DNA from: Neisseria leonii
GTDB taxonomy: Bacteria > Pseudomonadota > Gammaproteobacteria > Burkholderiales > Neisseriaceae
DNA: 64,000 nt
Direction of reading: 5' to 3'
NCBI RefSeq assembly: GCF_028776105.2
Contig: NZ_CP145606.1
Span: 930,001 to 994,000 of the forward strand
Every line of letters starts with the position of its first letter. The first letter of the stretch is position 1. Made by a program: the position numbers and the translations under genes. Below are positions 40,740 through 55,052 of this stretch, one piece after another. The notes under the pieces are model-generated. The model ran no database searches, was not told where the DNA came from, and worked only from the letters and a program-made list of their open reading frames with translations.

Positions 40740-40843
40740 ACCGCCCCATTTGTCTGCACAACGGCTTTTCAGACGGCCTGACCGCCATACCCGCAGGAGA
40801 AACCGTACCGGATATTCCCGCCCGGCAATCCCGAAAACCGCAG

Positions 40844-41059
40844 GTCGGATATTCCTATCCGACACCCTGCTGCACTGCTGCGCCGCTTCTGTCGGATTCA
40901 AGAATCCGACCTACATCAAGCTGCCGTTTTCAGACGGCCTGACCATGTCGCGGGCAAAATCTACCCGACATTCCACCTGAAACCGTAGGTCGGATATTTA
41001 TATCCGACACCCTGCTGCACCGCTGCGCCGCTTCTGTCGGATTCAAGAATCCGACCTAC
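40844..41059. repeat. REP array with an 83-bp duplicated block
   Basis: REP copies lie at 40844-40862, 40891-40914, 40985-41008 and 41036-41059. The block from CCGACACCCTGCTGCA to the following DUS (about 40858-40942) recurs almost unchanged at about 41003-41087. The rest of the 490 bp gap holds DUS copies and the rhlE promoter area. Confidence 0.85.
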
Positions 41060-41233
41060 ATCAAGCTGCCGTTTTCAGACGGCCTGCCGATACTCCGCCC
41101 GCCCCGCCGCCGGCCTTTTATGGCATAATACCGCCTCCGGCCGGTCCCCGTCCGTACCGCCCTTTCCCAATATTCGCCAACCGCCTGCCCATAATAAACG
41201 ATTCCAAGCGCGCGGTTTGACAGGAGTTATCCC

Positions 41234-42716: not shown

Positions 42717-43104
42717 GTAGGCAGGATACTCGTATCCGAGACCGCCACTCCCGTAGGTCGGAGACTTATATCCGACAACACCACCCGCCAGCCCGAACAG
42801 ACAGCCACTCCCGTAGGTCGGATACTCGTATCCGACACTACTGCACCCGCCAACCCGCCACACCTGAACAGACAGTCGGATACAAGTATCCGGCCTACCG
42901 TTGGCACACCCGCCTCGAACCGCCCCGATGCCGTCTGAAAACCGCGCGGTGCGCCGCTTCTGCGAAGCTAAAACAAACGAAATACGTTTCTGTGAAGCCC
43001 AAACAGGAAAAGCGGATTTCCGCACAACCAAACCGGCAGAGCAGATTGCACAACTAAGAACACCCCCAAAAAAAACGTAGGTCGGATACTTGTATCCGAC
43101 CTAC
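42717..43104. repeat. REP cluster upstream of the surface-protein locus
   Basis: Copies lie at 42717-42740, 42753-42776, 42813-42836, 42875-42898 and 43077-43104. The last is a full palindrome with GTAG at one end and CTAC at the other. Spacing and orientation vary, and no gene is visible. Confidence 0.88.
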
Positions 43105-43551: not shown

Positions 43552-44454
43552 ATGAATACTCAGCTGAAAATTTTGAGCGCAGGTATTCTGTCCGTTGCTT
43601 TGGCCGGCTGCGCAACAGGCGCCAAAGAACAATGGCAGAACTTCACCACCCGACCCGTCGTTTCCCAAGTAGCGGAAAACGATGCCGCACTGGTGTTCTA
43701 CCGTGATAACACAGGCAGCGACAAAACCGCCGTCAATATCATCATCAACGGCGAATACATGACTTCACTGCAGCAAAACGGTTTCTCCCAAATCACCACC
43801 TGCGCCCTGCCGCAGCGTATCGGCGCTTTCGTAACCGGTACCGACAACCAGTACCTGCGCAAAGCCGGTCAAGGCAGCTTCTTTAATCCTGCCGCCGGTC
43901 AGGCTTCCTACTTCCGCGTCAGCGTCGGCGCAGACGGCCAAGCCGTCCTGACAGCCGTCGATGCCGATACCGCACGCGCCCAAATCGATACCGCCAAGTT
44001 CCAAAGCAATACCCTCCAACGTGTCGATAAGGCCTCAACCTGTGTAGACCGCAGACAGCCCCGTACCTACACCCTCGATGCCTCCGCACTGTTCCAGTTC
44101 GACCAGTCCGCTCCCGCCAATATCCTCCCCGACGGCCGTGAGGAAATCGCCGCCATCGCACGCGATATCCGCGAGTATCCCGTAACCATCCGTGCCATCG
44201 AAGTCGTCGGCCATACCGACCCGCAGGGCGATGCCGCATATAACCAGCGCCTCTCCGCCGCACGTGCGCAAACCGTCGGCAATCTGCTGGTACAGGCCGG
44301 TGCACCCGCCTCTCTCATCCATGCCCGCGGTGTGGGTGAAACCCAGCCCGTTGTCGCCGATTGCGCCCTGCGCCATAAAGGCAACCGCGAGGCCGTCAAT
44401 GCCTGCAACCAACCCAACCGCCGTGTCGAAGTCAAGCTGCACGCGCAACAGTAA
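43552..44454 (+). CDS. OmpA-domain outer-membrane lipoprotein
   Basis: This 300-residue protein has a lipoprotein signal with lipobox LAGC (Cys20). A central domain of about 45-150 has no known name to me. The C-terminal OmpA-like peptidoglycan-binding domain (about 190-297) includes VVGHTDPQGDAAYNQRLSAA, then GVGE, then NRRVEV. The giant adhesin starts 23 bp later, so the two are probably one operon. It may anchor or help export the adhesin; this is inference. Part of the gene has been copied in inverted orientation at 53584-53713. Confidence 0.85.
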   Translation: MNTQLKILSAGILSVALAGCATGAKEQWQNFTTRPVVSQVAENDAALVFYRDNTGSDKTAVNIIINGEYMTSLQQNGFSQITTCALPQRIGAFVTGTDNQYLRKAGQGSFFNPAAGQASYFRVSVGADGQAVLTAVDADTARAQIDTAKFQSNTLQRVDKASTCVDRRQPRTYTLDASALFQFDQSAPANILPDGREEIAAIARDIREYPVTIRAIEVVGHTDPQGDAAYNQRLSAARAQTVGNLLVQAGAPASLIHARGVGETQPVVADCALRHKGNREAVNACNQPNRRVEVKLHAQQ

Positions 44455-44477: not shown

Positions 44478-47400
44478 ATGTCTAAAAACATTACTTTGAA
44501 AGTAAACAGCGCCAAGGAAACTTTGGACACCCTGCAGTTCAATACTGCCGGCAATCAGGCCGTACGTGTCAAAGCCCAGCCCAATGTCAATTACGAGCTG
44601 ACCGACGAAGCCACCGGCTTCGGCCCGGAAAACATTATGACCCAGCGTTCCGGCAATGATCTGCATATCGCTTTCGAAGGCAGCGATATTGCCCAGCCGG
44701 ATCTGATTATCGAGGGTTATTACGATCAGGATAATACCAATCTGCTGATCGGCCGGCATGAAAACGGCAATTTCTATCCCTATGTCCCCGAAAGCGGTCA
44801 AACTGCCGATGCGGTCAGCATGTTGGCCGACCATGTCGCCGCCGGTCAGGCTTTGGGCGGCAATCCGGTAACCTCTCCCCTGTGGGTGTTTAATCCGTTG
44901 TGGCTGCTGGCCCTGCTGCCCATCGCCGGTGCCATTGCCGCCATTTCAGGCGGCAGCGGCGATAAAGCCGCCCCGAAAACCGCCGCTCCGACTGTAACGG
45001 TAACCAACACCGATACCGACGGCGACGGCACACCGGACAAAACCACCATCAGCGGCAAAACCGAGCCGGATGCGGATGTAACCGTCAAATTACCGGACGG
45101 CTCAACCGTTACCACCAAAGCGGACAAAAACGGCAACTACACCGTAGATACTCCGAATCCGCTGAAAGACGGCGATAAAGTGACCGTCGTGGCCAAAGCC
45201 CCGGGCAAAGATGCCTCTGACCCGACCGAAGGTACCGTACCTGCTCAGCCGGACACCACTGCTGACACCCCTGATGTGGTTGCCAACGATGACGGCTCTG
45301 TAACCGTGACGCCAGGCGATGACAATGTAACCAACAAAGTGGATTACACTGACGAAGACGGCAACAACCAAACCATCACCGCCAAAAAAGGTGATGACAA
45401 CACTTGGACGGCAACCGACAAAGACGGCAACCCAATCCCAACCGCACCGGATGCCAACAACCCAAGCAAACCTTGGATTGACCCGAACACCGGCAAAATC
45501 ACCCTGCCACCAGAAGCAGTGAAAGACGGCAGTGATGTTACTGCCACCGCGACTGATAAAGCAGGTAATGAGGCGAAAGACCAAGACACCGCTAAAAACG
45601 ACCCGAAAAATGCCAAAGTCGTTTTTGAAGACAAAGACGGTGACGGCAACAACGACAACATCGTAACCGAAACCCCGAAAAGCGAAGGCGAAACCTTAAA
45701 AACCACCATCAAGCTGGACAACAACAACGGTGTGGACAACTTGGTTATCGGCATCAACGGTCAGGTAGACGGTGATGATTTTGATTTGACCGGCGTAACC
45801 TTCACCAACGGCGTAACCTCAAATGGCGACGGTACGGTCAATGTGCCTGCCGGCGTAACTGAGTTTGATGTGATTGTTCCGGTGAAAGCCGACCAAACCA
45901 CCGAAGGCAATGAAACCGGTAAAGTGGCAGTAGGCAACCCGGGCGACGGCTCTGTCGTGGAAGGTAATGAATTTACCATCACAGACAGCTCAACCACCCC
46001 AGCCCAACCGCAGCCGAAAGCCGAACAGCCTTCTGTTACGCCGTCTGATAACGACGGTTCGGTAACGGTAACCCCGGGCAACGGCAATAACGGCGGTACC
46101 ATCAGCTACACCGGCGAAGACGATAGCGACAACACCATCACCACCAAAAAAGGTGATAACGGTCAATGGACGGCTACCGACCAAGACGGTAACGACCTGC
46201 CGACACAAGCAGATCCGAACAATCCGAACAAACCTTGGATTGACCCGACTACCGGCGTGGTAACCATTCCGCAAGATGCAGTTAAAGACGGCTCTGATGT
46301 AACAGCCAAAGGTAAAGAAGACGGCAAAACCGATTCTGACCCTAAAACAGGCACAGCAGGCGAAGACAGCAAAGATGCCAAAGTCATCTTTGAAGACAAA
46401 GACAACGACGGTCAAAACGACAACATCGTAACCACCACCCCGAAAAACGAAGGCGAGAACTTGGTAACGACCATCAAGCTCACCAACGACAACGGTGTGG
46501 ACAACTTGGCAGTCGGCATCACAGCCGCTTCACAAGTGGACGGCGATGACTTTGACACCGATAATGTTACCTACACCGCTTACGACAAAGACGGCAACGA
46601 AGTACCAAACGGCATCACCAAAAATGCAGATGGCACAGTCAATGTTGCCAAAGGCGTTGCCAGCTTCACCGTCAGCGTCCCTGTAACCGAGGACAACGAA
46701 ACCGAAGGCAACGAGACTGGTAAAGTAGCTGTTGGCAACCCAGACGGCACAGTGGCAGAAGGCAATGAGTTTACTATCAATGACACTTCAACCACCCCAG
46801 CCCAACCGCAACCGAAAGCCGAACAGCCAACGGTTGACCCTGTGCCAAATACAGGCTCTGTAACCGTTACTCCAGGCAACGGCAACGACACCGTGGAAAT
46901 CACTTTCACTGGTGAAGATGAGCAGCCGAAGACAGTTACAGTAACCAAAGGCAGCAATGGTGAATGGACAGTTACTGATCCAAACAATACCGGTGCAACG
47001 GTTGATCCAACCACTGGTAAAGTAACCATCCCACAAGATAGCATCAAAGACAACTCTGATGTTTCTGCCAAAGGTAAAGAAGACGGCAAAACCGATTCTG
47101 ACCCTAAAACAGGCACAGCAGGCGAAGACAGCAAAGATGCCAAAGTCATCTTTGAAGACAAAGACAACGACGGTCAAAACGACAACATCGTAACCACCAC
47201 CCCGAAAAACGAAGGCGAGAACTTGGTAACGACCATCAAGCTCACCAACAACAACGGTGTGGACAACTTGGCAGTCGGCATCACAGCCGCTTCACAAGTG
47301 GACGGTGATGACTTTGACACCGACAATGTTACTTACACCGCTTACGACAAAGACGGCAACGAAGTACCAAACGGCATCACCAAAAATGCAGATGGCACAG

Positions 47401-50378
47401 TCAATGTTGCCAAAGGCGTTGCCAGCTTCACCGTCAGCGTCCCTGTAACCGAGGACAACGAAACCGAAGGCAACGAAACCGGTAAAGTAGCTGTTGGCAA
47501 CCCAGACGGCACAGTGGCAGAAGGCAATGAGTTTACTATCAATGATACTTCAACCACCCCAGCCCAACCGCAGCCGAAAGCCGAACAGCCAACGGTTGAC
47601 CCTGTGCCAAATACAGGCTCTGTAACCGTGACTCCAGGCAACGGCAACGACACCGTGGAAATCACTTTCACTGGTGAAGACGAGCAGCCGAAGACAGTTA
47701 CAGTAACCAAAGGTAGCAATGGTGAATGGACAGTTACTGATCCAAACAATACTGGTGCAACGGTTGATCCAACCACTGGTAAAGTAACCATCCCACAAGA
47801 TAGCATCAAAGATAACTCTGATGTTTCTGCCAAAGGTAAAGAAGACGGCAAAACCGACTCTGACCCTAAAACAGGCACCGCAGGCGAAGACAGCAAAGAT
47901 GCCAAAGTCATCTTTGAAGACAAAGACAACGACGGCAACAACGACAACATCGTAACCACCACCCCGAAAAACGAAGGCGAGAACTTGGTAACGACCATCA
48001 AGCTCACCAACAACAACGGTGTGGACAACTTGGCAGTCGGCATCACAGCCGCTTCACAAGTGGACGGTGATGACTTTGACACCGACAATGTTACTTACAC
48101 CGCTTACGACAAAGACGGCAACGAAGTACCAAACGGCATCACCAAAAATGCAGATGGCACAGTCAATGTTGCCAAAGGCGTTGCCAGCTTCACCGTCAGC
48201 GTCCCTGTAACCGAGGACAACGAAACCGAAGGCAACGAAACCGGTAAAGTAGCTGTTGGCAACCCAGACGGCACAGTGGTAGAAGGCAATGAGTTTACCA
48301 TCAACGACACCTCAACCGCCCCTGCAGATCCGGCAACCAGCTTCACCTTGGGCTTGACCGACAACTTAACCGATGAAAACGACCCGAACCGCTTCCCAAT
48401 CAACGGCAGAACCGAAGCCTATGCCTACTATGAAGGCGGCAATACCAACAAATATATCGGTGAGATTGCCAACGCCAGCGGCGATACGGCATTAAGCCGC
48501 GACACAGGCTTGACCAACGATCCGAACATCACCTTGATTGTGAACTTGGACAAACCGTTGGCAGCAGGTCAAGAGTTGGTGGTTACCCGCTACACAATGG
48601 TGAACGGTCAGCGTACCAACCCGGAAGATGTCAGCAGCAAATTGAGCGCTGTCGCCAACACCCCGGGGCAATACTCAATGCGTGATGACCTGACCAAAAC
48701 CTACGGCACGGATTATCAATATGAAGTCGTGCTGAAAACCAACGGCGTGGCAGGCACACCAAAAACCTACGACTTCCGCCTGGATACCGAAGTGGAAGCA
48801 ATGGAAGTTACCAAAGCCAACTTCGCCAACGGCAATGCCGAAATCGAGCTGACCGCCCGCGGCAACTCGGAAAAAGGTGCGACCATCTACGGTATGTGGG
48901 AATCAGGCGGCAGCCAGCAGTATGTCCAGTTCACCGAAACCAACGGTGTCTACACGGCAAACCTGCAAGGCTTCAACTACAAAGATGCCAAAGGCCTGCA
49001 AATCATCACCGTGGATGCGGCGGGTAATATCCTGACCCAAAAAACCAACTTTATCCGCAACCTGTTCAGCGAGTACAACGACCAATTAGGTCCGGATACC
49101 ACGCAGAGCAACCTAATCAACAACGGTGGCTATGACGATGCAAACCGCATTGCAGGTCGTCAAGGCGTGGCAGGCTCGCCAAACGGCGTAGTAACCACAG
49201 ACGGCAACGATGCCTTGATTATCGGCTTGGATCAGTTCGGCAATATGGGCTTCCTAAACGGCTCATTGGCTGATGAAGGCGGTGTGGCAAACCCACGCGT
49301 CAACAACATCAACACCGGTGCAGGCGACGACTTTATCCTAGTCCGTGGTGCATACCAAGGCTTTGAAAGAGATGCCGAAATCAATATGGGCGAAGGTAAC
49401 GACAAATTCCAAGTCAACCACGCCGTATTAGGCTCAATGGCAAATCCGAAACTCCGCCTGAATATGGGTGAAGGCAACAATGTTATGGTCTTCAAAGAGT
49501 ACATCGGTGCGACAATGAACACCATCATCACCGCAGGCAACGGCAACGACACAATGCTGGTCGGCACTAACTGGGACGGTCCGAAAACCGCCAACTTCGG
49601 CCACGGCGACAATGTTGTCAATGTCGGCGGCTATATCGTGGGTAACGGTACTCTCGACTTCGGCAACGGCAACGACCAGCTGATCACCGGCGGACACATC
49701 GACGACCGCGACTTCACGGTTAATATGGGCGACGGCGACAACTTCCTTCAAGTCGGCGGCAGCTTGGTCGGCGGTAAAGTCATTATGGGCTCAGGCGACG
49801 ATGTTGCTGTGTTAACGGGTATGGGTGCAACCCACAAACTCACCAGCGACACCGCCGACACCCAATTGATGATGGGTGCAGGTAACGACAGCGTAACCCT
49901 CACCGGCGGCTCAGTGCGTGGCTTGGTAGACCTGGGCGACGGCGACGACACATTAAGTGTTGCCACCATCACCAACTCACCAAACGCCAACGAACTCCGC
50001 TTCGACGGCGGTGCAGGCAACGACACCATCACCCTCACCGGTGGCGACGAAACCTACACAATGGCACTTATCAAGAACTTTGAAGTAATTGATATGAAAG
50101 CCACCGCCACCAAGCAGACCCTGAATGTACGCATCGAAGACATTCTCGCCAACGACAATGTTACCGAGCTGTACATCAAAGGTGGCAACGAAGATGTGGT
50201 GAACTTGGGTGGTAACAACGGCGATGCCAACCTGAACGACCGCTTAAACGGCAACAATGTGGTGTGGACGAAGATGGACGCAGCCCAAAAAACCGTGGAC
50301 GGCATCACCTACGACGCCTACACCGTATCCAGCTCAACCGAGTGGGTATACATCCAACAAGGCGTACAAGTCGTTTAA
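44478..50378 (+). CDS. giant BapA-like repetitive adhesin, type I secretion type
   Basis: The 1966-residue protein has no Sec signal. Residues 1 to about 130 form a BapA-prefix-like domain, followed by a hydrophobic stretch (about 133-160) and an Ig-like domain (about 165-255). Four modules of about 254 residues follow (255-1278). Each has an Ig-like half (VTVTPG...WT.TD) and a Calx-beta-like half with Asp-rich calcium loops such as DKDNDGQND. The last three are nearly identical. The C-terminal third has about ten RTX-like rows (GEGNDKF, GNGNDTM, GDGDDTL; about 1630-1845) and ends in a VYIQQGV strand, as in type I secreted adhesins. No secretion genes lie in the window. CGGAG precedes the start. 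Confidence 0.88.
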   Translation: MSKNITLKVNSAKETLDTLQFNTAGNQAVRVKAQPNVNYELTDEATGFGPENIMTQRSGNDLHIAFEGSDIAQPDLIIEGYYDQDNTNLLIGRHENGNFYPYVPESGQTADAVSMLADHVAAGQALGGNPVTSPLWVFNPLWLLALLPIAGAIAAISGGSGDKAAPKTAAPTVTVTNTDTDGDGTPDKTTISGKTEPDADVTVKLPDGSTVTTKADKNGNYTVDTPNPLKDGDKVTVVAKAPGKDASDPTEGTVPAQPDTTADTPDVVANDDGSVTVTPGDDNVTNKVDYTDEDGNNQTITAKKGDDNTWTATDKDGNPIPTAPDANNPSKPWIDPNTGKITLPPEAVKDGSDVTATATDKAGNEAKDQDTAKNDPKNAKVVFEDKDGDGNNDNIVTETPKSEGETLKTTIKLDNNNGVDNLVIGINGQVDGDDFDLTGVTFTNGVTSNGDGTVNVPAGVTEFDVIVPVKADQTTEGNETGKVAVGNPGDGSVVEGNEFTITDSSTTPAQPQPKAEQPSVTPSDNDGSVTVTPGNGNNGGTISYTGEDDSDNTITTKKGDNGQWTATDQDGNDLPTQADPNNPNKPWIDPTTGVVTIPQDAVKDGSDVTAKGKEDGKTDSDPKTGTAGEDSKDAKVIFEDKDNDGQNDNIVTTTPKNEGENLVTTIKLTNDNGVDNLAVGITAASQVDGDDFDTDNVTYTAYDKDGNEVPNGITKNADGTVNVAKGVASFTVSVPVTEDNETEGNETGKVAVGNPDGTVAEGNEFTINDTSTTPAQPQPKAEQPTVDPVPNTGSVTVTPGNGNDTVEITFTGEDEQPKTVTVTKGSNGEWTVTDPNNTGATVDPTTGKVTIPQDSIKDNSDVSAKGKEDGKTDSDPKTGTAGEDSKDAKVIFEDKDNDGQNDNIVTTTPKNEGENLVTTIKLTNNNGVDNLAVGITAASQVDGDDFDTDNVTYTAYDKDGNEVPNGITKNADGTVNVAKGVASFTVSVPVTEDNETEGNETGKVAVGNPDGTVAEGNEFTINDTSTTPAQPQPKAEQPTVDPVPNTGSVTVTPGNGNDTVEITFTGEDEQPKTVTVTKGSNGEWTVTDPNNTGATVDPTTGKVTIPQDSIKDNSDVSAKGKEDGKTDSDPKTGTAGEDSKDAKVIFEDKDNDGNNDNIVTTTPKNEGENLVTTIKLTNNNGVDNLAVGITAASQVDGDDFDTDNVTYTAYDKDGNEVPNGITKNADGTVNVAKGVASFTVSVPVTEDNETEGNETGKVAVGNPDGTVVEGNEFTINDTSTAPADPATSFTLGLTDNLTDENDPNRFPINGRTEAYAYYEGGNTNKYIGEIANASGDTALSRDTGLTNDPNITLIVNLDKPLAAGQELVVTRYTMVNGQRTNPEDVSSKLSAVANTPGQYSMRDDLTKTYGTDYQYEVVLKTNGVAGTPKTYDFRLDTEVEAMEVTKANFANGNAEIELTARGNSEKGATIYGMWESGGSQQYVQFTETNGVYTANLQGFNYKDAKGLQIITVDAAGNILTQKTNFIRNLFSEYNDQLGPDTTQSNLINNGGYDDANRIAGRQGVAGSPNGVVTTDGNDALIIGLDQFGNMGFLNGSLADEGGVANPRVNNINTGAGDDFILVRGAYQGFERDAEINMGEGNDKFQVNHAVLGSMANPKLRLNMGEGNNVMVFKEYIGATMNTIITAGNGNDTMLVGTNWDGPKTANFGHGDNVVNVGGYIVGNGTLDFGNGNDQLITGGHIDDRDFTVNMGDGDNFLQVGGSLVGGKVIMGSGDDVAVLTGMGATHKLTSDTADTQLMMGAGNDSVTLTGGSVRGLVDLGDGDDTLSVATITNSPNANELRFDGGAGNDTITLTGGDETYTMALIKNFEVIDMKATATKQTLNVRIEDILANDNVTELYIKGGNEDVVNLGGNNGDANLNDRLNGNNVVWTKMDAAQKTVDGITYDAYTVSSSTEWVYIQQGVQVV
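45241..48314 (+). repeat. coding repeat array of four units of about 762 bp
   Basis: Units start at about 45241, 46003, 46790 and 47552. Unit 1 is divergent, unit 2 is about 787 bp and differs mainly in its Ig half, and units 3 and 4 are exactly 762 bp and almost identical. The second halves of units 2, 3 and 4 are also nearly identical. This points to recent duplication and conversion. Confidence 0.9.
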
Positions 50379-50379
50379 T

Positions 50380-50965
50380 GTAGGTCGGATACTTGTATCC
50401 GACTGGATGCGGTATCCGACTGGTTGCGGTATCCGACTGGATGCGGTATCCGATAACCTCGGTGTCGGATTGAAAAACCCGACCTACCGCAACTCGGATA
50501 TCCGTATCCGACATTAACGGAACACCATAAACCAAACACCCCCGAAGTTCGGGGGTGTTTTTTTGTAGGTCGGATACTTGTATCCGACATTTACGCTGTA
50601 TCCGACATTTCCATTTGCCTGCCATCGGTTTTTGATTATGTCTTGTATCCGACATTCACGCCGTATCCCACATTTTCCCGCACGGCAATGTCGGATTTAA
50701 AAATCCGACCTACCTATCGTGCGAATTTATCAAACCGTAGGTCGGATACTTGTATCCGACATTATGCAAATTCACATCCAACATAAAAAATGGCAAACCG
50801 TTGATAAAAATGTCGGATTTAAAAATCCGACCTACAAATCACCGTGCAAATTCATTATGATATATACATAAAAAAACCGTAGGTCGGATACTTGTATCCG
50901 ACATTGCATATTTATCATCGGCATTATTATGTCGGATAAAAAAATGTCGGATTTAAAAATCCAAC
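50380..50965. repeat. REP cluster between adhesin and RAYT gene
   Basis: Copies lie at 50380-50403 (one base after the adhesin stop), 50464-50487, 50565-50588, 50690-50713, 50737-50760, 50812-50835, 50879-50902 and 50946-50965. Two loop types alternate, ATACTTGTAT and ATTTAAAAAT, usually in opposite orientation. A 17-bp unit (GGATGCGGTATCCGACT) is repeated three times at 50405-50455. Confidence 0.9.
50535..50564 (+). terminator. intrinsic terminator of the adhesin operon
   Basis: AACACCCCCGA and TCGGGGGTGTT form an 11-bp stem with a 3-nt loop, followed by seven T. It lies 157 bp after the adhesin stop. Confidence 0.9.
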
Positions 50966-50999
50966 CGACCGACAACCATTCAAAACAAAGGAGACTTCA

Positions 51000-51491
51000 A
51001 TGCACTACCGACGGCTCTACCACCAAGGCGGCACTTACTTTTTTACCGTGGTAACGCACAAACGCCAACCGATTTTAACCACCGACACCGTCCGCACCGC
51101 TCTGCGACAGGCTGTGATGACTGTCCGTGAACAATACCCCTTTGAAAATGTGGCGTGGGTACTCCTGCCCGACCATATGCACATCATTTGGCGGCTGCCT
51201 GACGGCGACGGCAATTTCTCCGAACGCTGGCGGCAAATCAAACGCCGCACCCAATTTCAACTCGGCTCATCGGTCAAACTGTGGCAAAACCGCTTTTGGG
51301 AACATCTGATCCGTGATGAAAAAGACTTTGAACACCATTTTGATTACCTGCATTTCAACCCCGTCAAACACGGTTACGCCCAAACCGTTGCCGATTGGCA
51401 ATTTTCCACCTTTCATCGTTATGTCAAACAAGGGATTTATCCGCACGATTGGGGCGGCGGCACACAGATGGATTGGGAATTTGGCGAATAA
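51000..51491 (+). CDS. REP-associated tyrosine transposase (RAYT)
   Basis: This 163-residue Y1-transposase-like protein starts MHYRRLYHQGGTYFFTVVT, a RAYT signature. The HUH metal pair is His59 and His61 in PDHMHIIW. The catalytic Tyr116 lies in HFDYLHFNPVKHGY. RAYTs cut and join single-stranded REP DNA and are thought to spread REPs. AAAGGAG precedes the start. REP palindromes with the GTAG end flank the gene on both sides. It is a single-copy domesticated transposase gene, not an insertion sequence with inverted ends. Confidence 0.93.
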   Translation: MHYRRLYHQGGTYFFTVVTHKRQPILTTDTVRTALRQAVMTVREQYPFENVAWVLLPDHMHIIWRLPDGDGNFSERWRQIKRRTQFQLGSSVKLWQNRFWEHLIRDEKDFEHHFDYLHFNPVKHGYAQTVADWQFSTFHRYVKQGIYPHDWGGGTQMDWEFGE

Positions 51492-51588
51492 ATTGCCGAT
51501 GGGAGATGATGTTACACGCCGTGCAAATGTTGATAAAAAAATGTCGGATTAAAACACCGCCCAAATCGTGCAAATATCGAAAAAAAAT

Positions 51589-51682
51589 GTCGGATTTAAA
51601 AATCCGACCTACAAATCACCGTAGGTCGGATACTTGTATCCGACATTTTCCCCACGGATATTGTTGGATTGAAAAACCCGAC
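51589..51682. repeat. REP cluster downstream of the RAYT gene
   Basis: Copies lie at 51589-51612 (ATTTAAAAAT loop), 51621-51644 (ATACTTGTAT loop) and a decayed one near 51662. They lie head to head, like the copies upstream of the gene. Confidence 0.85.
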
Positions 51683-51702
51683 CAACATTACCGATATTCT
51701 AC

Positions 51703-51731
51703 TTGGCTTTTTATAACTTATTGGTTATAAT
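51703..51731 (+). promoter_or_regulatory. higBA promoter with overlapping operator
   Basis: TTGGCT (51703-51708) and TATAAT (51726-51731) are 17 bp apart. The inverted repeat TTATAAC (51711-51717) / GTTATAA (51724-51730) lies over the spacer and -10, a fitting site for autorepression by HigA. Confidence 0.7.
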
Positions 51732-51761
51732 TACCCCAAAAAAGAAATCGCAGGCGGAACA

Positions 51762-52112
51762 ATGTTTACGGTTATTTATGCCCCACAATTTGCCGATTGG
51801 CTATCAACACTTGATGATGAAGCATTGGAAGATGTTGAGGCGATGATAGAATTGCTCAAAACATACGGCTACAACTTGGCACGCCCCTACGCCGATACCA
51901 TCAAAGGCAGTAAATTTAATAACCTTAAAGAATTACGCATACAGCACGATGGCAGACCTTTGCGGGCATTTTTTATCTTCGACCCACTGCGGCAGGCGAT
52001 TGTCCTGTGCGGTGGCGACAAAACAGGCGATAAACGCTTTTATCAAAAAATGATTCCGCTTGCCGAAAGCATCTATCAATACTATCTTACCCAGTTGGAG
52101 CAACCGCAATGA
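51762..52112 (+). CDS. higB: HigB-like toxin (RelE/ParE superfamily)
   Basis: This 116-residue protein matches the Gp49/HigB group of ribosome-dependent mRNA nucleases. The stretches FNNLKELRIQHDGRPLRAFF and VLCGGDKTGDKRFYQKMIP contain the conserved basic residues and the final Lys/Arg helix. Its stop overlaps the antitoxin start (ATGA at 52109-52112), toxin first, which is the HigBA order. GC content is lower than in the housekeeping genes. Confidence 0.9.
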   Translation: MFTVIYAPQFADWLSTLDDEALEDVEAMIELLKTYGYNLARPYADTIKGSKFNNLKELRIQHDGRPLRAFFIFDPLRQAIVLCGGDKTGDKRFYQKMIPLAESIYQYYLTQLEQPQ

Positions 52113-52408
52113 AATTTATCAGCCACGATGACTACATCGCCCGCCTGCCAGCCGACCAGCAGGAGCGTATCCACGCCAAAGCCCAAAAGCTCAAACAGGC
52201 ATACGAACTGGCACAGCTGCGGCAAAATGCCGAGCTGTCGCAACAGGCACTTGCCGCCAAAATGGGCGTATCGCAAGCCAATATCAGCAAAATTGAAAAC
52301 GGCGGCGATGTGCAGCTATCCACCCTGCAAAAATATGTCGCAGCCTTGGGCGGCAAACTCGCCATCACCGCCACAATGGCAGACGGCAAAGTGATTGCGA
52401 TTGTGTAA
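52109..52408 (+). CDS. higA: HigA-like antitoxin (XRE helix-turn-helix)
   Basis: This 99-residue DNA-binding antitoxin has an XRE domain at about 40-92: LSQQALAAKMGVSQANISKI is the helix-turn-helix. It neutralises HigB and represses the operon. The first part of this gene (52130-52275) has been copied to 53404-53549. A hairpin terminator follows. Confidence 0.9.
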   Translation: MKFISHDDYIARLPADQQERIHAKAQKLKQAYELAQLRQNAELSQQALAAKMGVSQANISKIENGGDVQLSTLQKYVAALGGKLAITATMADGKVIAIV

Positions 52409-52423
52409 GTTGGGCTTGCCAAT

Positions 52424-52454
52424 AAACACCGCCTGATTTTGGCGGTGTTTTTTT
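52424..52454 (+). terminator. intrinsic terminator of higBA
   Basis: AAACACCGCC and GGCGGTGTTT form a 10-bp stem with a 7-nt loop, followed by a run of T. Confidence 0.9.
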
Positions 52455-52514
52455 GCATTGATGCCAAACCGTGGTGAATGTTGGATAAAAAAACATTGCC
52501 CAAACCGTGTAAAT

Positions 52515-52538
52515 GTCGGATTTAAAAATCCGACCTAC
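52515..52538. repeat. REP palindrome between the two toxin-antitoxin operons
   Basis: GTCGGATTTAAAAATCCGAC is followed by CTAC. It is the same loop type as the copies next to the RAYT gene. Confidence 0.88.
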
Positions 52539-52653
52539 ATTGCCAACACCCTTAAAATTACCCGCAACAAGCGGCACATCAAAACCGCATTCTCCAATCT
52601 CCAAAGCCCTTTTTCAGACGGCAACACCAATTTCTTTTCTGTTGCTGTTTTGC

Positions 52654-52682
52654 TATAATTAAGACCATAAAAAAGGTCTTAA
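52654..52682 (+). promoter_or_regulatory. -10 element and operator of the phd-vapC operon
   Basis: TATAAT at 52654-52659 is followed by the perfect inverted repeat TTAAGACC (52659-52666) / GGTCTTAA (52675-52682). It lies directly before AAAAGGAG and the antitoxin start. The -35 is weak (TTTCTT at 52631-52636). The repeat fits antitoxin autoregulation. Confidence 0.65.
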
Positions 52683-52693
52683 AAGGAGTATTT

Positions 52694-52936
52694 ATGCCAA
52701 GCATCAGCATTTCCGAATTGAAGAAAAATCCATCGGCAGCGATTTTTGAGGCACAAAATGAGGCAGTAACAGTACTCAACCACAACAAGCCTGCTGCTTA
52801 TCTGCTGTCGGTTGCCGAATATGAAACCCTGACCGGCAGAGTCCGGCTGGGCAGCCGTATCCGTCAGCGTTTTCAAGAGATTGCCGATGACGGCTTTTTA
52901 CTGCCCGATCGGGCGGATCTGCCCAGAGGTTATTAA
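52694..52936 (+). CDS. Phd/YefM-type antitoxin
   Basis: This 80-residue protein starts MPSISISELKKNPSAAIFEA, the Phd/YefM DNA-binding fold, with HNKPAAYLLSVAEYE after it. The C-terminal part (about 50-80) should bind and block the toxin. AAAAGGAG precedes it. The stop overlaps the PIN toxin start (TAATG), so translation is coupled. Confidence 0.9.
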   Translation: MPSISISELKKNPSAAIFEAQNEAVTVLNHNKPAAYLLSVAEYETLTGRVRLGSRIRQRFQEIADDGFLLPDRADLPRGY

Positions 52937-53349
52937 TGTATCTAATTGATACCAATGTGATTTCCGAGCTGATGCGTCCTGTGCCGAATGCTGGCGTTTT
53001 GGCGTGGCTGGACAGCCATCATCCGCTGTACATCAGCAGCATAACCCAAGCCGAGCTACTGTTTGGGGTATACCGCATGGCGGAGAGCAAACGCAAAACC
53101 GCCTATCTTGCCGCCTTGCAGGAAATGTTTGAACAGGATTTCATCGGTCGGATTATCGGTTTTGATACGGCTTGTACCACTGCCTATGCCGAAATCTGCT
53201 GCCGTCGTTTTGCCGTGGGCAAACCCATTCATACCGCCGATGCCCAAATCGCCGCCATTGCTTTGACATACGGTATGTGCCTGACAACACGCAACACCAA
53301 GGATTTTACCGATATTGACGGTTTGACGCTGATCAATCCTTTTGTTTGA
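52936..53349 (+). CDS. vapC: VapC/FitB-like PIN-domain toxin ribonuclease
   Basis: This 137-residue PIN nuclease has the acidic residues in order: Asp5 in YLIDTNVISE, Glu near 37 in ITQAELLFG, Asp near 99 in HTADAQIAA, and the last Asp/Asn in TRNTKDFTDI. The family cleaves tRNA or other RNAs. It is coupled to the Phd-type antitoxin. The 50 bp after its stop show no terminator and run into a recombination scar. Confidence 0.92.
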   Translation: MYLIDTNVISELMRPVPNAGVLAWLDSHHPLYISSITQAELLFGVYRMAESKRKTAYLAALQEMFEQDFIGRIIGFDTACTTAYAEICCRRFAVGKPIHTADAQIAAIALTYGMCLTTRNTKDFTDIDGLTLINPFV

Positions 53350-53403
53350 ATAAGAGATAGACCCAATCGACTGTGCTCCCCAAACAATCCGCCCGCTCTT
53401 AAC

Positions 53404-53713
53404 AACTACATCGCCCGTCTACCAGCCGACCAGCAGGAGCGTATCCACGCCAAAGCCCAAAAGCTCAAACAGGCGTATGAACTGGCACAGCTACGGCAAA
53501 ATGCCGAGCTGTCGCAACAGGCACTTGCCGCCAAAATGGGCGTATCGCACAATTTCAAATCAGCTCATCGGTCAAACTGTGGCCAAGTCTGCACTCCACA
53601 CAGGTTGAGGCTTTATCGACACGTTGGAGGGGATTGCATTGGAACTTGCCGGTATGGATTTGGGCACGTGCGCTATCAGCATCGACAGCTGTCAGGACGG
53701 CCTGGCCGTCTGC
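53404..53713. pseudogene. chimeric scar of higA, RAYT and OmpA-lipoprotein gene fragments
   Basis: Three pieces are joined without gaps. 53404-53549 copies higA 52130-52275 with only about four or five changes. 53550-53583 copies RAYT gene 51252-51285 with two changes. 53584-53713 copies lipoprotein gene 43929-44050 in inverted orientation with roughly 85-90% identity. No piece has an intact start and stop, so none is likely functional. The parents lie up to 9.8 kb upstream, in the same accessory block. Confidence 0.85.
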
Positions 53714-53751
53714 TCTGGGCATAAAAAAGCCCCCGTATGACGGTGGCGGTT

Positions 53752-54183
53752 TCAGACGGCCTGTGATGGCGGCGGATAAACACCGATCTGCCACAGCAGC
53801 GACAAATGGTCGAACTGGGCAAACTCGCGCACAATCCTGCCGTTTTTCAAACGGTAGAGATTCATAGCCGAAACTTTTACCGCCCGATGGCTGGGCGCAT
53901 AACCTTCAAATTCGCCCTGATGCGTCCCCACCACCGAAAAACGTGCCACCAGCACATTGCCCTCGCCCACCACTTCCTCCAAATGCCAAACCGCATCGGG
54001 AAATCCGCTGCGCAGCCGTTGGAGAATCGCCACATAACCCTCGGGGCCGGTATATTCGTGTCCGCTGACCGGCGCCCTGAACACCGCTTCAGGCGCAATC
54101 AATTCTTCGGCCAACGGCAGGGAAGCCGTATTCAAAAACATCACAAAACGCTGCATAAACGCCTGATTTCCGATTTGGCTCAT
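53752..54183 (-). CDS. SnoaL-like / NTF2-fold protein
   Basis: This 143-residue protein has the SnoaL-like cone fold pattern: an N-terminal helix (MQRFVMFLNTA), then GPEGYVAILQRLRSGFPD and NVLVARFSVVGTHQGEF, then AMNLYRLKNGRIVREFAQFD. Members are polyketide-cyclase-like or ester-cyclase-like proteins of varied or unknown role. AAGGACAAGAGC precedes the start at 54181-54183. The last codons and stop (Q-A-V-stop) come from a DUS. Confidence 0.8.
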   Translation of the reverse strand: MSQIGNQAFMQRFVMFLNTASLPLAEELIAPEAVFRAPVSGHEYTGPEGYVAILQRLRSGFPDAVWHLEEVVGEGNVLVARFSVVGTHQGEFEGYAPSHRAVKVSAMNLYRLKNGRIVREFAQFDHLSLLWQIGVYPPPSQAV

Positions 54184-54425
54184 GGCTCTTGTCCTTTTAC
54201 TTGCCCGCAAACAGTGAAATGCATCATACGCCAAGAACGGATTTTTTTGTAGTCGCATGTAATTTCCGGCCATGCCGCCGGCCTGCGGGCAGCTATGCCG
54301 CCTCCGGGCTGTTTTTCCCCACCGACCGCCAGCCCCCGCTAACCGGAATTTACCCGACTGCCCCTTTATTTTCTGCGGTACGGCCGTCATGATGCGGTTT
54401 TCCACTAACCGAGCAAGGCACACTC

Positions 54426-55052
54426 ATGAACCTCCAAAGCATTCTCAACCAAGTCCTCAACAGCGTACAGAACAACACACCGGTCGGCGGCCGCAGCCCG
54501 TCGCCGTTAAACGGTCTGGGCGGCGGTATGCTGACAGCCGGCATTCTGTCGATGCTGATGAAAAAGAAAAGCACCAAATCGCTGGCCAAGGCGGGATCGG
54601 TGGCGGCTCTGGGTATGCTGGCCTATCAGGCCTATCAGAGTTGGCAGCAAAACAGCCGTCCGCAGGCCGCCGCACCCGCAGCCGACCAGTTTGCCCACAA
54701 TCAGGCCGACGGCGAAGCACACAGCCGTGTGATTCTGAAAACCATGATTGCCGCTGCCGCTTCAGACGGCCTGATCGATGCACAGGAGCGTGCGATGATC
54801 GAGCAGGAAGCCGTGCAGTATCCGCAGGAACAGCAATGGCTGGCACAAGAGTTCAACCGTCCGGCTTCCGCAGCGGAGGTCGCCGCAGCCGTCGGCGGCC
54901 GCCCTGCCTTGGCGGCCGAAGCCTATCTGGCCGCGCGTATGGTCTGCGACGAATTATCGCGCAAAGAAATCGTGTTCCTGTCGCAACTGTCGCAGGCATT
55001 GAATCTGGACGACCAATTGGTTGATGCGCTGGAAAAACAGGCCGGTTTTTAA
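54426..55052 (+). CDS. yebE: YebE-like protein (DUF533, TerB-like fold)
   Basis: This 208-residue protein has a Gly-rich N-terminus with a hydrophobic stretch (GGGMLTAGILSMLM, about 33-46) and a helical TerB-like domain from about 100 on (HSRVILKTMIAAAASDG, DAQERAMIEQEA, AARMVCDELSRKE). The family is membrane-linked and stress-induced in enterobacteria, with unknown biochemistry. It is convergent with dapE across a DUS terminator. Confidence 0.85.
   Translation: MNLQSILNQVLNSVQNNTPVGGRSPSPLNGLGGGMLTAGILSMLMKKKSTKSLAKAGSVAALGMLAYQAYQSWQQNSRPQAAAPAADQFAHNQADGEAHSRVILKTMIAAAASDGLIDAQERAMIEQEAVQYPQEQQWLAQEFNRPASAAEVAAAVGGRPALAAEAYLAARMVCDELSRKEIVFLSQLSQALNLDDQLVDALEKQAGF

What the first reader, a model, noticed from the sequence alone, without database searches (positions are those of the whole stretch)
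53404..53725. Three-gene mosaic scar stitched from higA, RAYT and OmpA-lipoprotein fragments
In 310 bp, pieces of three genes from 1.1 to 9.8 kb upstream are joined end to end, one inverted. The junctions are abrupt and the lipoprotein piece is more diverged (about 85-90%) than the higA piece (about 97%). The pieces thus differ in age or came from other alleles. The presence of a RAYT fragment hints that single-strand transposase activity or DNA uptake recombination built it. It shows that the adhesin-RAYT-TA region has been rearranged or once existed as more copies.
Basis: seen in the sequence. Interest (0 to 1): 0.72.

Follow-up and report, generated by a model that had tools for sequence, protein, structure and literature searches.

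The report
Three-piece mosaic pseudogene scar
A 309-base stretch beside a toxin-antitoxin operon, probably in the rabbit bacterium Neisseria leonii, is a real patchwork of three neighbouring genes, most likely the leftover of messy DNA copying or repair in more than one step rather than a working element.

Summary
Window 53405-53713 is covered, piece against piece, by copies of an antitoxin gene (higA-like, 140/145), a RAYT gene (34/37) and, inverted, an OmpA-family lipoprotein gene (114/127). The three source genes are intact ORFs about 1.1-9.7 kb upstream; no better donor appeared in the own genome, and the mosaic was not found in 45 congeners, plasmids or phages (capped searches).

So the higA piece probably came from a diverged but working allele and joined late, or was refreshed; the RAYT-lipoprotein part looks older and decayed. 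The signal rests on 21 differences and weakens to p 0.014 when junction-near bases are dropped.

RAYT-driven transposition is not supported: no REP core in the scar, none nearer than about 240-250 bases to a source breakpoint. Best reading: an inert scar of at least two illegitimate joining steps. Mechanism and order are inferred; strain genomes that could date the junctions were out of reach. Real, but ordinary in kind.

The parts
53405..53549 (+). Piece 1: copy of the antitoxin (higA-like) gene, bases 52131-52275, codons 8 to 56
   Evidence: 140/145 identical; all 5 differences synonymous
53550..53586 (+). Piece 2: copy of the RAYT gene, bases 51252-51288
   Evidence: 34/37 identical, E 3.8e-8 in the genome; 3 differences, all nonsynonymous; stricter scoring ends it at 53583
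53587..53713 (-). Piece 3: inverted copy of the OmpA-family lipoprotein gene, bases 43930-44056
   Evidence: 114/127 identical, no gaps; 6 synonymous and 7 nonsynonymous differences
52109..52408 (+). Source of piece 1: intact HTH antitoxin ORF of a toxin-antitoxin pair (HigBA-like is a recalled label)
   Evidence: ORF; Pfam HTH_3, partner Gp49 at 51762-52112
51000..51491 (+). Source of piece 2: intact RAYT ORF
   Evidence: NCBIfam NF047646, 175.8 bits, cut-off 80; only genome match at E 0.001
43552..44454 (+). Source of piece 3: intact OmpA-family ORF (lipoprotein by its signal, recalled) next to a long adhesin-like ORF at 44478-50378
   Evidence: Pfam OmpA; 71% identical homologue next to an adhesin homologue in congener G001
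52694..53349 (+). VapBC-like operon immediately upstream of the scar
   Evidence: Pfam PhdYeFM_antitox and PIN; the NCBIfam VapC models match below their cut-offs
53350..53404 (.). Left flank of unknown origin between the vapC stop and the scar
   Evidence: no match listed in the genome or genus searches
53714..53751 (.). Right flank of unknown origin, followed by an uptake-sequence core at 53751
   Evidence: congener matches here centre on the uptake sequence; motif position

Best explanation
The stretch is an inert rearrangement scar built in at least two steps. Step 1 (inferred): an illegitimate joining event, most simply a replication template switch onto the opposite strand, placed about 37 bases of RAYT next to an inverted 127-base patch of the lipoprotein gene; this pair then decayed as non-coding DNA. 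Step 2 (inferred): 145 bases of a higA gene, from an allele that was still working and differs from the present one only at silent sites, joined it later or were refreshed there by gene conversion, possibly on DNA taken up from another strain. Shown: the three pieces, their adjacency, their intact local sources and their different substitution patterns. Inferred: the order, the enzymes and the lack of function.
For: Adjacency of copies of three neighbouring genes whose ORFs are intact. higA: 5 of 5 differences silent (7e-4 if neutral; 5e-3 counting transitions only). RAYT plus lipoprotein: 10 of 16 nonsynonymous; changed codons 0 of 48 against 10 of 54, p 0.001; silent against not, p 0.035. 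Part of the divergence lies on the side of the present genes: 4 of 13 lipoprotein differences equal G001 in the scar, and at 1 of 3 RAYT differences the scar base equals 8 of 12 aligned congener copies. The homologue on a second contig named N. leonii (P0001) has glycine where the scar codes glycine and the local copy alanine. Candidate microhomology CGCA at junction 1. In starving E. coli, complex junctions with inverted duplications and microhomology are interpreted as repeated template switching, with 22 of 90 sequenced junctions at REP (PMC3161906, passages and section 13 read).
Against: At 7 of 13 lipoprotein differences the local gene, not the scar, agrees with G001, 2 agree with neither, and overall the local piece is slightly closer to G001 (89 against 86 of 127); at the other 2 RAYT differences all 12 congener copies agree with the local gene. 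Junction 2 has no clear microhomology, and CGCA at junction 1 needs a two-base offset. No source breakpoint is at a REP hairpin. The lipoprotein piece has somewhat more silent changes than neutral decay predicts (6 of 13, p 0.07), so some divergence may predate the scar. The tests are several, uncorrected, rest on 21 differences, and weaken to p 0.014 when bases next to junction 2 are dropped. No strain with or without the scar could be compared.
Confidence: 0.6

Rival explanations
1. One complex event: repeated local template switching at a stalled or broken fork copied all three pieces at once from the present genes, and the differences arose during error-prone copying or afterwards.
For: All sources lie within 10 kb and are met in decreasing coordinate order. 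3 of 13 lipoprotein differences lie within 11 bases of junction 2 and 1 of 3 RAYT differences is 3 bases from it, as error-prone switching could leave.
Against: Substitution patterns differ between pieces (p 0.004; p 0.014 without the bases next to junction 2); 10 of 13 lipoprotein differences are spread over the rest of the piece.
Confidence: 0.22
2. Remnant of a second, rearranged copy of the lipoprotein-adhesin-RAYT-antitoxin neighbourhood, eroded by deletions to three fragments.
For: All pieces belong to one neighbourhood and their divergence fits old duplicates or other alleles. In G001 and G038 the lipoprotein-adhesin pair was found without the other 13 proteins of this section that were searched, apart from one weak Era match in G038.
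Against: No further fragment of such a copy was found beside the scar and no REP core lies in 53300-53800; it needs an inversion and several deletions that leave the pieces adjacent.
Confidence: 0.11
3. The RAYT transposase cut and moved the pieces as single strands.
For: One piece comes from the RAYT gene, and REP hairpins surround that gene.
Against: No REP core and no GTAG in 53300-53800; CTAC occurs three times, once at the left border, where the source gene has it too.
Confidence: 0.03
4. Functional element: RNA reading through from vapBC carries an antisense patch to the lipoprotein mRNA, or the opposite strand an antisense patch to the antitoxin mRNA.
For: No + strand terminator-like site in 52600-54400. 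Strong duplexes are predicted, but that follows from the shared sequence.
Against: No promoter-like site at the scar, no Rfam match in it, mosaic not found in 45 congeners, decayed pattern in two of three pieces.
Confidence: 0.03

Closest known systems
Complex junctions of template switching / MMBIR in bacteria (starving E. coli, PMC3161906, passages and section 13 read)
   Same: Several novel joints, inverted segments, short or no homology, REP-rich neighbourhood.
   Different: There rearrangements are observed directly, mostly kilobases long and tied to amplification; here a 309-base relic whose pieces have different substitution patterns.
Illegitimate recombination with short or foreign DNA during natural transformation, as studied in Acinetobacter baylyi (mechanism recalled; only passages and reference titles seen)
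   Same: Short ectopic or foreign segments inserted without long homology in a competent bacterium.
   Different: Not demonstrated here; three consecutive pieces; no donor strain identified.
Ordinary partial pseudogenes in intergenic regions (recalled)
   Same: Truncated copies of nearby intact genes.
   Different: Three genes joined with no or almost no spacer, one inverted, in different states of decay.

Membership tests
Template-switch (MMBIR-type) scar | Segments copied from nearby loci, source genes intact | tested here: met
   Three adjacent copies, source ORFs intact and within 10 kb
Template-switch (MMBIR-type) scar | Microhomology of a few bases at junctions | tested here: inconclusive
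   Candidate CGCA at junction 1, none clear at junction 2
Template-switch (MMBIR-type) scar | All segments formed in one event | tested here: inconclusive
   Different substitution patterns speak for more than one step; no strain series at hand
REP/RAYT mobile element | REP hairpin with GTAG tag at or in the moved piece | tested here: not met
   No GTCGGAT, ATCCGAC or GTAG in 53300-53800
Single decayed gene | One intact homologue covers the whole stretch | tested here: not met
   None in own genome, 45 congeners, plasmids, phages (genome searches scored 40 and 14 candidates per genome at most)
Import by natural transformation | A donor allele matches the pieces better than the local genes | not testable with these tools

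The most novel reading that the evidence does not exclude
A stepwise-grown patch downstream of vapBC that captures fragments of neighbouring genes and, through read-through RNA, acts as an antisense regulator linking the toxin-antitoxin locus to the lipoprotein-adhesin operon or to the neighbouring antitoxin.
Probability: 0.03. Interest if true: 0.75.

Novelty: new member of a known kind. Interest (0 to 1): 0.27.

Why it matters
It is a clear natural example of short, multi-source, partly inverted joining in a bacterium whose window is full of uptake sequences. The different substitution patterns of the pieces let a history be read from 309 bases, and the other sequenced strains of the species could test it. 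As a working element it is most likely without importance.

Tried and rejected
Better donor: own genome (40 of 572 candidates scored), 45 congeners (at most 14 candidates scored per genome), plasmids and phages at E 1e-5; none. Those collections may leave out records very near the window's genome. Empty site in relatives: the SnoaL-like protein has a close relative in 1 of 45 congeners (G013, 63%) and 4 weak matches; the 54426-55052 protein is found in 32 of 45, but in the two stretches fetched around it (G013, G007) none of the other 14 proteins of this section that I searched matched, so the locus could not be aligned. The scan of named genomes with the lipoprotein gave 11 distant loci, none of Neisseria. 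A protein search with the reverse-strand frame of the scar found only a 55-residue protein of the own contig, in a cluster of two member sequences; the second could not be read. HigA search: 55 proteins, no second N. leonii copy among them as far as names and contig lengths show. Coding role: a frame in phase with vapC is open over 53350-53721 (124 codons, then TAA), without ATG, GTG or TTG before 53536 and without an NCBIfam match. Rfam: two weak matches in 50300-54400, both below gathering score, neither in the scar. Promoter- and terminator-like sites were not above shuffled sequence. Literature, held library only: the phrase short-patch double illegitimate recombination is in 0 papers; listings (20 of 43 papers shown; 20 of 24; 7 of 7; 12 of 75; 10 of 10; 5 of 5) showed no title on such a mosaic in Neisseria. 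Entry 2 of my notebook gave the lipoprotein differences as 5 silent and 8 not; the codon count corrects this to 6 and 7. On re-checking I also found that exact borders depend on scoring and that 3 of 13 lipoprotein differences lie near junction 2; I ran for that and lowered the best explanation from 0.66 to 0.60 and raised the single-event rival from 0.17 to 0.22 (and the remnant rival from 0.10 to 0.11).

Full report
What is there. The window is G000:C1:930001-994000 of a single-contig genome of 2,206,085 bases. The strain is probably Neisseria leonii 3986T: the closest lipoprotein found, 97% identical, is named N. leonii and lies on a contig of 2,229,938 bases, and the species description gives 2.21, 2.32 and 2.23 Mbp for strains 3986T, 51.81 and JF 2415 (PMC11316581, passages read). 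This is an inference from size and similarity. The neighbourhood reads: OmpA-family protein (43552-44454), a 1966-residue adhesin-like protein (44478-50378; Pfam Big_6), a RAYT (51000-51491) among REP hairpins, a Gp49/HTH toxin-antitoxin pair (51762-52408; HigBA-like is my label), a Phd/PIN pair (52694-53349; VapBC-like), the scar, and a SnoaL-like gene on the other strand.

The observation. With default blastn scoring three matches tile 53405-53713 without gap or overlap: antitoxin gene 140/145, RAYT gene 34/37, lipoprotein gene 114/127 inverted. Other scoring shifts the borders: an 8-base overlap at junction 1 (first table) or 3 unassigned bases at junction 2. The genome search returns no better donor (40 of 572 candidates scored) and a family search one RAYT. 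Of 45 congeners 9 had a match to the 441-base query at E 0.001; 8 of these 9 match only the right flank with its uptake sequence, and G001 alone touches the scar, through its own lipoprotein gene at 74%. Plasmid and phage collections gave no match at E 1e-5. In a 410-kb self-comparison 7 abutting low-copy pairs were listed, 2 of them this scar. That is 410 of 2206 kb, so rarity elsewhere in the genome is not known.

Different histories. If all pieces had been copied at once from the present genes and the scar then drifted, silent and other sites should be hit alike in all pieces. They are not. higA: 5 differences, all silent. RAYT: 3, none silent. Lipoprotein: 6 silent, 7 not. The chance of 5 of 5 silent under neutrality is 7e-4, or 5e-3 counting transitions only. 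Changed codons are 0 of 48 in higA against 10 of 54 in the other two (p 0.001), and silent against nonsynonymous counts give p 0.035. First- and second-position differences are 0 of 97 against 9 of 110 (p 0.004). Without the last 3 RAYT bases this is 8 of 108 (p 0.007), and without the 11 lipoprotein bases next to junction 2 as well 7 of 101 (p 0.014). The plainest reading is that the higA piece and the present higA diverged while both were working genes, so the piece comes from another allele and has been in the scar only briefly, or was refreshed by gene conversion. RAYT and lipoprotein pieces have similar divergence (3/37 and 13/127, p 1.0) and look decayed.

Polarity is mixed. Of 13 lipoprotein differences G001 agrees with the local gene at 7, with the scar at 4, with neither at 2; the local piece is slightly closer to G001 (89 against 86 of 127). 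At one RAYT difference (53559) 8 of 12 aligned congener copies agree with the scar, 1 with the local gene, 3 with neither; at the other two all 12 agree with the local gene (29 loci given to the script, 12 aligned over the piece). So both sides changed after the split. These tests are several, uncorrected, and rest on 21 differences.

How it may have formed. All donors lie within 10 kb and one is inverted, which fits switching between templates at a stalled or broken fork. The E. coli study describes insertion of nearby sequence at junctions for human non-recurrent events, reports similar complexity and microhomology for E. coli amplification, and found 22 of 90 sequenced junctions at REP (PMC3161906, passages and section 13 read). 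Here REP hairpins are frequent (30 in the window by one exact-arm pattern, so variants are missed), but no source breakpoint is nearer than about 240-250 bases to one, so a REP role is only circumstantial. Junction 1 has a candidate CGCA microhomology with a two-base offset, junction 2 none clear. RAYTs are reported to recognise single-stranded REP DNA and cleave its GTAG motif (PMC3733652, passages read); 53300-53800 has no REP core and no GTAG, only three CTAC, one at the left border and shared with the source gene. DNA uptake is possible in a window with 77 uptake cores but is not shown.

Function. No promoter-like site lies at the scar and no + strand terminator-like site in 52600-54400, with counts at chance level; no Rfam match lies in the scar; the mosaic was not found in congeners. 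The frame running on from the vapC stop is open over 53350-53721 but has no ATG, GTG or TTG before 53536. Antisense pairing with the lipoprotein or antitoxin mRNA is possible because the sequence is shared, but nothing shows that it is used.

Verdict. Observation confirmed; interpretation partly supported: different ages or alleles yes, RAYT activity not supported, DNA uptake and former extra copies undecided. An ordinary kind of rearrangement scar with an unusually readable, probably stepwise history.

Noticed in passing
window 50384-52534, 42757-43100, 40844-41055: Clusters of GTAGGTCGGAT-type REP hairpins (30 in the window by one pattern) around the only RAYT found in the genome and before the lipoprotein gene; the look of a REPtron.
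   Followed up: partly
window 46260-48322: Adhesin-like gene with 762-base tandem repeats, 97.2% identical over 1301 bases in register shift.
   Followed up: no
window 40835-41091: Direct duplication of a REP-containing unit of 107-112 bases, 95-96% identical, spacing 145 bases.
   Followed up: no
L114 17945-18242 and 19586-19909: Two collinear repeat blocks (132 bases at 95%, 88 at 89%) around a GTPase-like ORF (CysN-like, recalled) in the 410-kb sample.
   Followed up: partly
window 53350-53721: The frame of vapC stays open for 124 codons after its TGA, through the whole scar, without an ATG, GTG or TTG before 53536.
   Followed up: partly
P0121: The reverse-strand scar frame is in the protein database as a 55-residue protein whose cluster has two member sequences; the second may be another strain's version of the scar.
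   Followed up: no
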